Positions 6,127 through 59,994 of a DNA stretch of 64,000 nt are shown one piece after another. The notes below the pieces were generated by a model that worked only from the letters and a program-made list of their open reading frames with translations, did not search any database and had not been told where the DNA came from. The first letter of the stretch is position 1. Each line of letters opens with the position of its first letter. The DNA comes from Xanthomonas hortorum pv. cynarae. Its GTDB lineage: Bacteria; Pseudomonadota; Gammaproteobacteria; Xanthomonadales; Xanthomonadaceae. Location: positions 1-64,000 of the forward strand of contig NZ_MDFM01000029.1 in the NCBI RefSeq assembly GCF_002939985.1. Direction: 5' to 3'. The translations under genes and the position numbers were made by a program.

Positions 6127-6995
6127 TGGCCACCGCACGCGTCCGCACGCTCAGCGCTGCCGCATTGCGTGCGCTGCCGCTGCCATCGCCCGGTGGCGAC
6201 AAGGAACAGCGTGGGCGGGTGTTGATCGTGGGTGGGTCGATGCGTGTGCCGGGCGCGGCGCTGCTGGCCGGCGAGGCGGCACTGCGCGCAGGTGCGGGCA
6301 AGTTGCAGATCGCCACCGCTGCGAGCGTGGCGCCCGGCATGGCGCTGGCGGTGCCGGAGGCCCTGGTACTGGGATTGGCGCAAAACGGGCAGGGCGAAAT
6401 TACGCGTGGGCATCGTGCGCTGGATGCGGCACTGGAAGCCTGCGATGCGGCGGTGATCGGGCCGGGGATGGCGTCGTCGGCAACCACCGCTGCATTGGTG
6501 AAAAGCGCGGCTGAAAAAGCGGTTTGCACGTTGGTGCTGGATGCGGGAGCGTTGTCGCGCGGCTTGCGTGCGCCGGTTGGGCGGCCATTCGTGTTGACGC
6601 CGCATGCGGGCGAGATGGCGGCATTGGCTGGAGACGACAAGGCAGCGATAGAAGCGGCGCCGGGCGAGTACGCGCTGACCTATGCGAAGACACTGCGCAG
6701 CGTGGTGATTGTCAAAGGCGCGGACAGCTTTATTGCCGGGCCGGAGGGGGCGCTGTGGGTGCATCGCGGTGGTGCATCCGGGTTGGGGACGTCCGGATCG
6801 GGCGATGTGCTGGCGGGATTGATTGCCGGGTTTGCCGCGCGTGGGTGCGATGCGTTGACGGCTGCGTTATGGGGTGTGTTTGTGCATGCGGCGGCGGGGA
6901 AGCTGCTGTCGAAACGGATTGGGACGGTGGGATTTCTGGCGCGTGAGCTTGGGGTGGAAGTGCCGGGGATTTTGGATCGGTTGTCGCGCCGGTGA
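6126..6995 (+). CDS. nnrD: ADP/ATP-dependent NAD(P)H-hydrate dehydratase
   Basis: A 289-residue ribokinase-like enzyme that removes water from damaged NADHX/NADPHX using a nucleotide. Diagnostic motifs are present: RGRVLIVGGS near the start, GPGMASS, LDAGAL, VLTPHAGEMA, IVKGADSFI and GTSGSGDVLAGLIAG with the catalytic Asp. In many bacteria this domain is fused to the epimerase (NnrE) domain; here it stands alone, and no epimerase is in the window. It is coupled to the upstream phosphatase by a one-base overlap. Confidence 0.93.
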   Translation: MATARVRTLSAAALRALPLPSPGGDKEQRGRVLIVGGSMRVPGAALLAGEAALRAGAGKLQIATAASVAPGMALAVPEALVLGLAQNGQGEITRGHRALDAALEACDAAVIGPGMASSATTAALVKSAAEKAVCTLVLDAGALSRGLRAPVGRPFVLTPHAGEMAALAGDDKAAIEAAPGEYALTYAKTLRSVVIVKGADSFIAGPEGALWVHRGGASGLGTSGSGDVLAGLIAGFAARGCDALTAALWGVFVHAAAGKLLSKRIGTVGFLARELGVEVPGILDRLSRR

Positions 6996-7035
6996 TCGAA
7001 GCTCTTCATCTTTGATGCTGTACGCAGGCCAGAAG

Positions 7036-7205
7036 CCCCTCTCCAGCGGGAGAGGGGTTGGGGTGAGGGTACGTCTGCTGGAGCAGTGGGTCTGTCTTTC
7101 CAGATGGGGTTTATGTTGTTGCCTTGATTGCAGGGGCTCGATCGCACTCTCAGCAGACGTACCCTCATCCGCCCTTCGGGCACCTTCTCCCGGTGGGAGA
7201 AGGGA
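7036..7205. repeat. Pair of facing REP-like hairpins
   Basis: CCCCTCTCC/GGAGAGGGG (7036-7057, 4-base loop) starts the element. A block at 7061-7080 is repeated as its reverse complement at 7151-7170 (19 of 20 bases), followed by GCCC-TTC-GGGC and CTTCTCCC/GGGAGAAG hairpins up to 7205. The outcome is a ~170-bp inverted pair of intergenic repeats of the kind scattered in Xanthomonas genomes. It lies between nnrD and the GH30 gene and could stop or insulate nnrD transcription. Confidence 0.8.
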
Positions 7206-7429
7206 AGGTCTGGAGCGATATGAAGGAATGCGCGCTTGCGCTCGTTTGTTGCGCGATGTTGCGGCGCGTTGGTCGGTTAGGCTTGCACACCAACCTGGGA
7301 GGGTGCACGGTGAAGCGAACGATTGCGTGGTCGATGGTGGGGGTTTTGGGGGTTTGGGGCGTTGCGACTGAAATGGTGTTGGCATCTGCATCTGCATTAA
7401 CAGCAACAACAACTGCAGCAACAACAGCC

Positions 7430-7474
7430 GCAGCAAAAACAGCCGCAGCAAAAACAGCCGCAGCAAAAACAACC
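7430..7474 (+). repeat. 15-bp tandem repeat in GH30 linker (3 copies)
   Basis: GCAGCAAAAACAGCC is repeated at 7430-7444, 7445-7459 and 7460-7474 (last copy one base different), coding for Ala/Thr/Lys pentads. The 15-bp unit preserves frame, so copy-number change would vary linker length only. Confidence 0.9.
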
Positions 7475-7529
7475 GCAGCAACGCCGATTCCGATGCCGAC
7501 ATCGACGGCATCATCTGTCTCTACACCTG

Positions 7530-7561
7530 CATCGAAAGTGGCGGACATCGAAAGTGGCGGA
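7530..7561 (+). repeat. 16-bp perfect tandem duplication causing the frameshift
   Basis: CATCGAAAGTGGCGGA occurs at 7530-7545 and again, with no gap, at 7546-7561. Sixteen is not a multiple of three, and loss of one copy joins the signal/linker frame to the GH30 frame exactly (ASKVADAAVADAATQP). Confidence 0.95.
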
Positions 7562-9005
7562 TGCCGCAGTTGCGGATGCTGCTACTCAGCCAGCAGCACC
7601 CGCCGGCACGCTACGCGTCTACACCACCGCCCAAGGGGCGACGCAGCAGATGCGGGTCAGCACCGTCGAGGCACTCGAGACCGGGCATGCGTTGACGGAG
7701 AAAGAGAACAGCATCTTCGTCAATCCGCAGCACCGCTTTCAGGAAGTGTTGGGCATTGGCGGGGCGATCACCGATTCCAGTGCGGAGACCTTCGCCAAGC
7801 TGCCCAAGCGTGCGCAGCGCGAACTGCTCACTGCCTACTACGATCCGCAAAAAGGCATCGGCTACACGCTGGCGCGCACCACCATCCATAGCTCCGATTT
7901 CAGCAGCGCCAGCTACACCTACATCAAGGAGGGCGATGCGGCACTGAAGAGCTTTTCGGTCAAGCACGATCAGCGCTATCGCATCCCGATGCTACGCCAG
8001 GCCATTGCGGCGGCCGGCGGTAAGTTGACGACATTTGCCAGTCCCTGGAGCGCGCCGGCCTTCATGAAAGACAGCAACACCATGCTCAAGGGCGGCAAGT
8101 TATTGCCCGCGTATGCGCAGGCCTGGGCCACGTACTACACGCGCTTCATTGCGGCCTACGAAAAAGCCGGCATTCCGATCTGGGGCATCAGCGTGCAGAA
8201 CGAGCCGATGGCGGTGCAGACCTGGGAGTCGATGCAGTTTTCTGCGGAAGAAGAACGCGATTTCCTCAAAAACCACCTCGGGCCCACCATGGCAAAAGCC
8301 GGCTACGGCGATCGCAAGATCATCGTGTGGGACCACAACCGCGACATGATGGTGCACCGCGCGCATGTGATCTTCGACGATCCGGAAGCGGCCAAGTACG
8401 CGTGGGGCATGGGCTTCCACTGGTACGAGACCTGGGCCGGGTTTGCGCCGATGGTGGAGAACGTGGCGGCGGTGGCGCAGGCGTACCCGGACAAGCATCT
8501 GCTGCTCACCGAGGCGGCGGTGGAAAAGTTCGACCCCGCCAGGTTGCAGTACTGGCCCAATGGCGAGCGCTATGGCACGGCGATCATCAACGACCTCAAT
8601 CATGGGGCGGTGGGTTGGACCGACTGGAACATCCTGCTCGACCAGAACGGCGGGCCGAATCATGTAGGCAATTACTGCTTTGCACCGGTGCATGCCGACA
8701 CGCGCACAGGCGAGGTGACTTACACGCCGAGCTACTGGTATATCGGCCACTTTTCCAAATTCATCCGGCCGGGTGCGCAGCGGGTGAGTGCGGCCAGTAG
8801 CCGTAGCAATCTGATGACCACTGCATTTGCGAACCGCGATGGCTCACTGGCGACGGTGGTGATGAATGCCGGCGATGTGGCGATCCGCTACAACCTGTAT
8901 GTGGGCGAGGCGTCGCGCGCGTTGGAGATCCCGGCGCATGCGATCCAGACGGTGGTGATGACGCAGTAAGGGTGGATGGTGGTCGCAGTGTTGGTGGGAG
9001 ATTGC

Positions 9006-9050
9006 GTACCCTCATCCGCCCTTCGGGCACCTTCTCCCGGCGGGAGAAGG
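9006..9050. repeat. REP-like hairpin repeat, second site
   Basis: The stretch from GTACCCTCATCC through GCCCTTCGGGC to CTTCTCCCGGCGGGAGAAGG is nearly identical to 7159-7203 (one difference in the last loop). It follows the GH30 stop codon by about 37 bases, so the GH30 gene is bracketed by copies of the same element. Confidence 0.85.
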
Positions 9051-9260
9051 AGGGGCTTGCGTGATCGAAGCCATCTTTGCGTAGCCGGTCGAACTAACTT
9101 GCGTATCCGTCTTACTGATGCATCACCAGTCGATACTGTCGCCAGTACCAAAAACGCCACCGAAGAGACGCTTGCCGATCACTGCGCATGCAGCGATCGG
9201 CAAGGTTTTGGTGACGCTACGGCGGAAGCTCTTTCTGTTGGCTCAGGACAGCCGGTTGGC

Positions 9261-10163
9261 TCAGGACAGCAGCAGACCACCGGTGGCACCGAACACTTCG
9301 CCAGTGACGTAGCTGGATTCCTGCGAAGCCAGGATCACATACAGCGGCGCCATCTCCACCGGCTGGCCGGCACGCTTGAGCGGGGTTTCCGAGCCGAAAT
9401 CGGGAATCTTCTCCGGCGGTTGGCCACCGCTGGGTTGCAGCGGGGTCCACACCGGTCCGGGTGCGACCGCGTTGACGCGGATGCCCTTTTCGGCGACCTG
9501 CTGCGCCAGGCCCTTGGTGAAGTTGACGATGGCGGCCTTGGTGGAGGCGTAGTCGATCAGGGTTGCCGAGGGCTGGTAGGACTGGATCGAGCCGGTGTTG
9601 ATGATGGATGCGCCCGGCGGCAGATGCGGAATGGCCGCCTTGCATAGCCAGAACATCGCGTAGACGTTGGTCTTGTAGGTGGCGTCGAACTGCTCGGTGG
9701 TGATGTCGGCAATATCTTTCACCGCGGTCTGCTTGCCGGCGATGTTGACCAGCAGATCCAGCCCGCCGAGTTCCTTGACCGCGCGTGCGACCAGTTCATT
9801 GCAGAACGCTTCGTCCTTGAGGTCGCCCGGGATGCTGATGGCAGTGCGGCCTTCGGCCTGGATCAACTGCACCACCTCCGCCGCGTCCTGTTCTTCTTCC
9901 GGCAGGTAGTTCAGCACGATGTCGGCGCCTTCGCGTGCGTAGGCAATCGCGGTGGCGCGGCCGATGCCCGAATCTGCACCGGTGATCAGCGCCTTGCGGC
10001 CCTTCAGGCGGCCGAAGCCCCGGTAGCTCTGCTCGCCGTGGTCGGCCTTGGGTTGCAATGCATGGATGGTGCCTGGCGCTTCCTGGGTTTGCTCGGGGAA
10101 CTTGGGCTGCGGAAACTGGGTGAGCGGGTTCTGCATTGCGTACTGGTTCTTGGTGCTGGACAT
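9261..10163 (-). CDS. SDR-family NAD(P)-dependent oxidoreductase
   Basis: A 300-residue classical short-chain dehydrogenase. After a ~50-residue polar leader come the cofactor loop TGADSGIG (TGxxxGxG), NIAG, the catalytic Ser in [13 protein letters not shown] with catalytic Tyr and Lys, and the PGPVWTPL loop. The long N-terminal extension ([18 protein letters not shown]) is typical of the YhdG/YhxD/GSP39-like subgroup, often stress-induced. The substrate is not deducible. No operon partner; the upstream DUF429 gene is divergent. Confidence 0.9.
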
Positions 10164-16438: not shown

Positions 16439-16489
16439 TTGGCGGCGCGGGGTGTTTGCTGGGGCGGTGATGGGTTCTTGGGCGCCGCC

Positions 16490-16517
16490 GGGAATCGGGA
16501 TTGGGGAATCGGGAATC
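16490..16517. repeat. Four tandem GGGAATC-like heptamers
   Basis: GGGAATC, GGGATTG, GGGAATC, GGGAATC in a row, a simple intergenic repeat between the zinc finger gene and the EAL gene. The rest of the gap 16439-16639 shows nothing recognisable. Confidence 0.8.
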
Positions 16518-16639
16518 GTAACTGCGGTTTCGATGCGTTTAATTTCTTTCCTGCTGGGACGTTGTGCGTTGGTGATTGCTAGTGGCACCCGCTGATGAGG
16601 TGTGTGCTGGTTCGCTTGCTTCACTCGCACACATGCGAA

Positions 16640-18183: not shown

Positions 18184-18260
18184 GCGGCTGATTTGCGGGT
18201 TTGCTGCAGGGCCCTTGCCCGCCCGCCGTCGCGGGACACGCCGCAAGTACGTCCTTGTAG
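18184..18260. repeat. Palindromic element, copy A (left half only)
   Basis: This 77-bp block matches the left part of copy B at 18281 with about five differences (GCGGCTGATYTGCGGG... to CAAGTACGTCCWTGTAG). The returning arm of the hairpin is missing, so it is a truncated copy. Confidence 0.85.
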
Positions 18261-18280
18261 TGTCATCGGCACGTTGGTTC

Positions 18281-18422
18281 GCGGCTGATCTGCGGGTTTG
18301 TTGCAGGGCCCTTGCCCGCCCACCATCGCGGGACACGCCGCAAGTACGTCCATGTAGGCTCTTACGCGGCATCCATGCCGCGTAAGGTCCCGCGACGGTG
18401 GGCGGGCAAGGACCAGTCGAGA
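18281..18422. repeat. Palindromic element, copy B (type I, + orientation)
   Basis: The outer 25-bp stem (18309-18333 against 18389-18413) pairs with two mismatches. A conserved asymmetric segment (ACACGCCGCAAGTACGTCC) is followed by a perfect 12-bp inner stem CTTACGCGGCAT/ATGCCGCGTAAG (18361-18386, 2-base loop). Copy E at 59631-59771 is its near-exact reverse complement. Confidence 0.9.
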
Positions 18423-40239: not shown

Positions 40240-41658
<1,419 letters not shown>

Positions 41659-59630: not shown

Positions 59631-59771
59631 GACCATCTCGACTGGTCCTTGCCCGCCCACCGTCGCGGGACCTTACGCGGCATGGATGCCGCGTAAGAGC
59701 CTACAAGGACGTACTTGCGGCGTGTCCCGCGATGGTGGGCGGGCAAGGGCCCTGCAGCCAAGCCGCAGATC
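59631..59771. repeat. Palindromic element, copy E (type I, - orientation)
   Basis: Nearly exact reverse complement of copy B at 18281, including the inner stem CTTACGCGGCAT/ATGCCGCGTAAG. Together with copy D it forms a mirrored pair of the 18-kb cluster. Confidence 0.9.
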
Positions 59772-59994
59772 ATCCGCCCTACAACTGATCTCTCCGTGCT
59801 AGCCAACCAATCACTCCTAGACAACCAAGATTTCGAGTCCTAGCGGCATCTCACCGCGCTTAGAGGCTGAGTGAGTTGCGCGCGCGGTGTCCTCGCCAAA
59901 GCACAATAGTGGTAGGTAGCGGATGAAATGCATTGGGCGCGAAACGACATGAAAGTCGCTCGCGCCCAAGTTTGCACGGCCTGTGCGGATGCGG

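What the first reader, a model, noticed from the sequence alone, without database searches (positions are those of the whole stretch)
7530..7561. 16-bp tandem duplication switches off export of a GH30 glycosidase
The signal peptide and linker are in one frame, the intact catalytic domain in another, and a perfect 16-bp tandem duplication lies precisely at the junction. Deleting one copy gives one continuous 547-codon protein. Tandem duplications of this length can revert by slippage, so this could be an on/off switch for a secreted plant-glycan enzyme. Sequence facts are direct; phase variation is inferred.
Basis: partly seen in the sequence, partly recalled or inferred. Interest (0 to 1): 0.78.

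Follow-up and report, generated by a model that had tools for sequence, protein, structure and literature searches.

The report
Recent frameshift in secreted glycosidase gene
A perfect 16-base tandem duplication really does split a secreted sugar-cutting enzyme gene of a plant-associated Xanthomonas into two reading frames, but it looks like a recent one-off loss found in this genome only rather than an evolved on/off switch.

Summary
Observation confirmed. A perfect 2 x 16 bp tandem duplication (7530-7561) lies in a Xanthomonas GH30 gene, after a start with a strong Shine-Dalgarno, a signal-peptide-like segment and an Ala/Thr linker. The intact catalytic domain follows in another frame. Translation from GTG 7310 gives 193 codons ending out of frame at 7891.

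The duplication was seen in this genome only: 0 of 24 aligned relatives have it, and in 26 of 26 relatives with a recognised start, start and domain share a frame. The catalytic piece shows 16 silent and 2 replacement changes on this lineage, so any loss is recent.

Switching is not supported, though not excluded: two units, no microhomology at the ends, no second state seen, no reads. The gene is damaged or partial in 4 and not found in 6 of 34 congeneric genomes, so sporadic loss is simpler.

"Plant-glycan enzyme" is unsupported: the nearest solved relatives are SrfJ and glucosylceramidase, and the xylanase model score is far below cut-off. Papers list SrfJ-like genes of Xanthomonas as putative type III effectors; signal-peptide-like N-termini and no PIP box favour Sec export. 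Assembly error cannot be ruled out.

The parts
7297..7303 (+). Shine-Dalgarno-like GGGAGGG before GTG 7310
   Evidence: anti-SD duplex -10.7 kcal/mol versus 5th percentile -6.7 for 1000 random windows; the 20 bp before the start are identical in 16 of 26 relatives and similar in the other 10
7310..7396 (+). Signal-peptide-like N-terminus (VKR..., hydrophobic core, Ala-Ser-Ala)
   Evidence: VKR plus a hydrophobic stretch in 26 of 26 relatives with a recognised start; no signal-peptide predictor was available
7401..7481 (+). 15-bp repeat array in the Ala/Thr-rich linker
   Evidence: TRF 5.4 copies, 93% match; start-to-domain distance differs between relatives by whole codons
7530..7545 (+). First copy of the 16-bp unit
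7546..7561 (+). Second copy of the 16-bp unit, seen in this genome only
   Evidence: not in any of 24 aligned relatives; private insertion versus two sisters
7546..7891 (+). Out-of-frame tail of the product started at GTG 7310 (193 codons in all), ending in a stop
   Evidence: translation of the window as it stands
7554..8969 (+). GH30 catalytic frame (TIM barrel plus beta-sandwich); predicted acid/base Glu codon 8202-8204 and nucleophile Glu codon 8511-8513
   Evidence: PF02055 E 1.4e-71 and PF17189 E 4.8e-14; Glu placed by the alignment with SrfJ and human glucosylceramidase and residue positions

Best explanation
A recent, lineage-private frameshift mutation. A 16-bp segment in the linker of a Sec-exported, SrfJ/glucosylceramidase-like GH30 enzyme was duplicated in tandem. 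Ribosomes start at GTG 7310, make the signal peptide and linker, enter the wrong frame at the duplication and stop at 7891, so no exported enzyme is made. Shown: the sequence, the frames, absence of the duplication from the aligned relatives, and low replacement change in the catalytic piece. Inferred: loss of the enzyme, Sec export, and that this is loss of a dispensable gene rather than a regulated switch.
For: Perfect duplication and frame break. Seen in own genome and in 0 of 24 aligned relatives; start and domain in one frame in 26 of 26 relatives with a recognised start. Own branch 16 silent and 2 replacement changes (sisters 16 and 5, 22 and 6): P = 3.7e-9 with no constraint, and P falls below 0.05 if 6% or more of the branch was unconstrained. 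Repeated damage in the genus: of 34 relatives, 24 open throughout, 4 damaged or partial (L016 frame change near codon 249, L025 in-frame stop at codon 169 of the catalytic piece, L036 frame change and contig end, L037 remnant), 6 without a catalytic-domain locus. Strong start signal at 7310 and a weak one at 7554. One PF02055 match in this genome.
Against: No reads, no second strain and no protein data, so an assembly error or a mixed population is not excluded. The undamaged upstream frame and identical copies are also what a young reversible allele would show. The constraint estimate rests on 18 changes at codons where the two sisters agree, and on a constraint level (0.062) taken from three pairwise values.
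Confidence: 0.72

Rival explanations
1. Reversible phase variation: the two-copy state is OFF and slippage returns cells to ON, as reported for spontaneous duplications in pneumococcal capsule genes.
For: Perfect copies, unit not a multiple of 3, undamaged sequence on both sides. Precedent: reversible sequence duplications in capsule genes, as cited in PMC4243769 (passages seen).
Against: Two units only; no base of microhomology at either end that would help the duplication recur; not in 24 aligned relatives. SSR switches described in PMC11475388 are tracts that typically mutate at about 1e-3 per division (passages seen). Two-copy 16-bp repeats would at best lose a copy rarely (general knowledge).
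Confidence: 0.08
2. Assembly or sequencing error: the isolate has an unbroken gene.
For: Draft of 102 contigs; no reads available; not in 24 aligned relatives.
Against: A 32-bp perfect repeat about 7.5 kb inside a 65-kb contig is shorter than an ordinary short read and not a usual assembler error (general knowledge; the sequencing technology of this record is unknown to me).
Confidence: 0.12
3. Relocalised enzyme: a start at GTG 7554 (inside the second copy) or ATG 7650 makes an active cytoplasmic GH30.
For: The catalytic frame is open and has been under purifying selection; GTG 7554 is its first start codon.
Against: Weak ribosome binding before GTG 7554: -4.8 kcal/mol against -10.7 before GTG 7310. 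ATG 7650 was not properly tested: the scored window was set 3 bp off and gave -6.3, close to the random 5th percentile of -6.7.
Confidence: 0.05
4. Ribosomal frameshifting joins the two frames at a useful rate.
For: The two frames overlap without a stop from 7401 to 7888.
Against: None of 24 aligned relatives has the arrangement. By eye no homopolymer longer than 5 between 7400 and 7600. No dedicated slippery-site scan was run.
Confidence: 0.03

Closest known systems
Spontaneous reversible tandem duplications in pneumococcal capsule genes (Waite et al. 2001, 2003; seen only as citations and titles in PMC4243769)
   Same: Short sequence duplication inside an ORF, with loss of function
   Different: Reversibility is reported there; here one allele in one genome, no microhomology, reversion untested
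Simple-sequence-repeat phase variation (PMC11475388, passages seen)
   Same: Copy number of a unit that is not a multiple of 3 sets the frame
   Different: Two units, not a hypermutable tract; no copy-number series in relatives
SrfJ / SfrJ-type GH30 (PDB 2wnw; SrfJ/SfrJ listed as putative effector in PMC4686621, PMC8579042, PMC10275491; passages seen)
   Same: Best solved relative of the catalytic piece, E 1.7e-77
   Different: Xanthomonas orthologues have a signal-peptide-like N-terminus and a low-complexity linker, and no PIP box in the 500 bp before the start
GH30 glucuronoxylanase xyn30 of Xanthomonas (PMC3071791, passages seen)
   Same: GH30 family
   Different: XynC model score 48.9 bits against a cut-off of 650: inferred to be another GH30 branch; the two genes were not compared directly

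Membership tests
SSR/contingency-locus phase variation | Repeat unit that is not a multiple of 3 inside the ORF | tested here: met
   16-bp unit x 2.0
SSR/contingency-locus phase variation | Multi-unit hypermutable tract | tested here: not met
   exactly 2.0 copies, no shared base beyond the ends
SSR/contingency-locus phase variation | Copy number differs between strains, with both states found | tested here: inconclusive
   between species only: 0 of 24 aligned relatives have the duplication; no strains of the same species held
SSR/contingency-locus phase variation | Reversible switching in a population | not testable with these tools
   needs reads or cultures
Lineage-private frameshift (recent pseudogene) | Derived disruption absent from relatives | tested here: met
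   0 of 24 aligned relatives; private versus two sisters
Lineage-private frameshift (recent pseudogene) | Loss of function of the product | not testable with these tools
   inferred from frames and start signals
GH30 family | Pfam PF02055 above the curated cut-off | tested here: met
   241.8 bits, cut-off 23
GH30 family | Acid/base and nucleophile Glu pair | tested here: met
   Glu in the NEP and LTEA segments aligned with SrfJ and human glucosylceramidase
GH30_3 endo-1,6-beta-glucanase (NF053856) | Curated NCBIfam cut-off | tested here: not met
   250.3 bits against 700; still the better of the two NCBIfam matches
GH30_8 glucuronoxylanase XynC (NF052681) | Curated NCBIfam cut-off | tested here: not met
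   48.9 bits against 650
SrfJ-like type III effector | Sequence similarity to SrfJ | tested here: met
   2wnw_A E 1.7e-77, best of 29 PDB sequences
SrfJ-like type III effector | HrpX PIP box upstream (consensus recalled from memory) | tested here: not met
   0 of 27 regions (own and 26 relatives), 500 bp before the start, gene strand, strict or relaxed spacing
SrfJ-like type III effector | Translocation into host cells | not testable with these tools
   no assay

The most novel reading that the evidence does not exclude
A short tandem duplication arising without repeat-tract machinery acts as a natural, reversible OFF allele of export for a secreted SrfJ-like GH30, so that part of the population stops displaying the enzyme to the plant or to competing microbes.
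Probability: 0.06. Interest if true: 0.5.

Novelty: new member of a known kind. Interest (0 to 1): 0.2.

Why it matters
As a recent frameshift it matters modestly. It adds one more damaged copy to a gene already damaged or partial in 4 of 34 congeneric genomes and not found in 6. It also bears on how genome papers list SrfJ-like genes of Xanthomonas as putative type III effectors, since the orthologues seen here look Sec-exported. If reversible switching were ever shown, it would be a case of a two-unit duplication acting as an OFF allele in a plant-associated bacterium.

Tried and rejected
The promoter scan of 6900-9300 gave 0 sites, with 0.6 expected; terminator-like sites were 8 against 1.9 expected, 7 of them on the minus strand inside the 15-bp repeats and probably compositional. 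Rfam on 6900-9300: 0 matches. Papers with Xanthomonas + GH30 + hortorum: 0. Xanthomonas + GH30 + frameshift: 3 listed; I saw passages of one, which concerns the xylanase xyn30, and only the listing of the other two. The fuzzy search for the 16-mer read loci on the plus strand only, so it misses reversed loci; the alignment replaces it. L029 and L035 were left out of that junction alignment because their match starts inside the catalytic piece; L036 and L037 have no recognised start. The genus search scored 9 first-look candidates per genome and worked on DNA, so a diverged copy could be missed in the 6 genomes counted as 'not found'. The score meant for ATG 7650 used a position 3 bp off. No structure prediction was run.

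Full report
What is there. The window is from a draft genome of 5,057,880 bases in 102 contigs. The species itself is not named by any search. The finding's sequence facts are right: two identical 16-bp copies at 7530-7545 and 7546-7561. Twenty simulated Markov-1 windows gave no perfect tandem duplication with a unit of 16 or more, so chance is a poor explanation; it is a real duplication or an error of the record.

Frames. GTG 7310 has a strong ribosome-binding site (duplex energy -10.7 kcal/mol; 5th percentile of 1000 random windows -6.7). The 20 bases before the start are identical in 16 of 26 relatives and similar in the other 10. Read as it stands, this frame gives a hydrophobic N-terminus ending Ala-Ser-Ala, an Ala/Thr/Pro linker with a 15-bp repeat array, then a wrong-frame tail and a stop at 7889-7891: 193 codons. 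The catalytic frame runs to 8969 and matches the GH30 barrel and C-terminal domain above Pfam's cut-offs. The two predicted catalytic glutamates lie at 8202-8204 and 8511-8513. The genome gave one PF02055 match, this gene.

Relatives. One search covered 35 genomes of the genus, own included. Of the 34 others, 28 gave a locus with catalytic-domain sequence and 6 did not (G007, G013, G014, G019, G020, G025); this was a DNA search with a limited number of scored candidates, so a diverged copy could be missed. A start was recognised in 26 of the 28, and in 26 of 26 the start and the catalytic piece share a frame, although their distance varies (52 to 125 codons in the 24 whose match begins at residue 1). 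In 24 of the 34 the catalytic piece is open to its usual end. Two more have a start but are broken further down: L016 changes frame near codon 249, and L025 has an in-frame stop at codon 169 of the catalytic piece. L036 has a frame change and lies at a contig end, and L037 is a remnant. In the junction alignment of 24 relatives none has the duplication. Intact copies therefore exist widely, this break was seen in this genome only, and the gene is damaged repeatedly in the genus.

Age. Against the two sister genomes, the catalytic piece has 16 silent and 2 replacement changes on this lineage; the sisters' own branches have 16 and 5, and 22 and 6 (codons where the other two agree). With no constraint, 2 or fewer replacements among 18 has probability 3.7e-9. 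If 6% or more of the branch had been unconstrained, 2 or fewer would be expected less than 5% of the time (constraint level 0.062 taken from the pairwise values). The break is therefore young relative to the split from the sisters. This does not separate a young dead gene from a young reversible allele.

Switch or accident. A switch needs ON to OFF as well as OFF to ON. The base before the first copy differs from the last base of the unit, and the base after the second copy differs from its first base, so there was no microhomology at the ends to help the duplication recur. There are two units only. In 14.5 kb aligned with the two sisters this is the one private tandem insertion of 3 bp or more in this genome. 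G021 has a private 6-bp tandem insertion in the linker of the same gene, which keeps the frame, and G022 has private tandem insertions of 15 bp near 9111 and 7 bp near 16503. Small tandem duplications are thus ordinary events here. Reversible duplication of this kind has precedent in pneumococcal capsule genes (as cited in PMC4243769; passages seen), so reversion is possible, but nothing seen here shows it. Reads would decide.

What the enzyme is. Among solved structures the catalytic piece is nearest to Salmonella SrfJ (2wnw, E 1.7e-77) and human glucosylceramidase (E 2.6e-76), then 5ngk (E 1.2e-51), with xylanases at E 1.7e-27 or worse. [quoted passage not shown] PMC5481569 (passages seen) describes the BT3312 structure and says its subfamily acts on 1,6-beta-glucan. 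Neither the 1,6-beta-glucanase nor the XynC curated cut-off is reached; the first is much the better match (250.3 against 48.9 bits). The Xanthomonas xylanase xyn30 discussed in PMC3071791 (passages seen) is inferred to be another GH30. The substrate is open: glucosylceramide-like lipid or a beta-glucan is more likely than xylan. SrfJ's own function in the host is called unknown in PMC5723671 (passages seen). PMC4686621, PMC8579042 and PMC10275491 (passages seen) list SrfJ/SfrJ among putative type III effectors of xanthomonads; I infer, without having matched locus tags, that these are this family. The signal-peptide-like N-terminus in 26 of 26 relatives with a start, and the absence of a PIP box in 27 of 27 upstream regions (consensus recalled), argue for Sec export. 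[quoted passage not shown]

Verdict. The proposed switch is possible but unsupported, and the 'plant-glycan' label is not supported.

Noticed in passing
window 7158-7203 and 9005-9050: A dispersed 46-bp repeat flanks the GH30 gene on both sides; the own-genome search listed 48 places besides the gene's own full match, one of them the upstream copy, and scored only 40 of 184 first-look candidates, so the count may be low.
   Followed up: partly
window 41183-41273: Fifteen perfect ACAGCA units in frame inside a histidine phosphatase (branch 2) gene, coding a Ser-Asn run; possibly a hypervariable in-frame microsatellite.
   Followed up: no
window 16489-16518: GGGAATC-type heptamer repeats, the quadruplex-forming repeat described for Xanthomonas in PMC4692102 (passages seen; its authors think a role in phase variation unlikely); sister G022 has a private 7-bp tandem insertion there.
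   Followed up: partly
window 18184-18357 and 59701-59785: A repeat unit of about 77 bp occurs twice close together and again near 59.7 kb, with further matches in the sister stretches.
   Followed up: no
L016, L025, L036, L037: Damage of different kinds to the same GH30 gene in four other Xanthomonas genomes (L036 also ends at a contig edge).
   Followed up: partly
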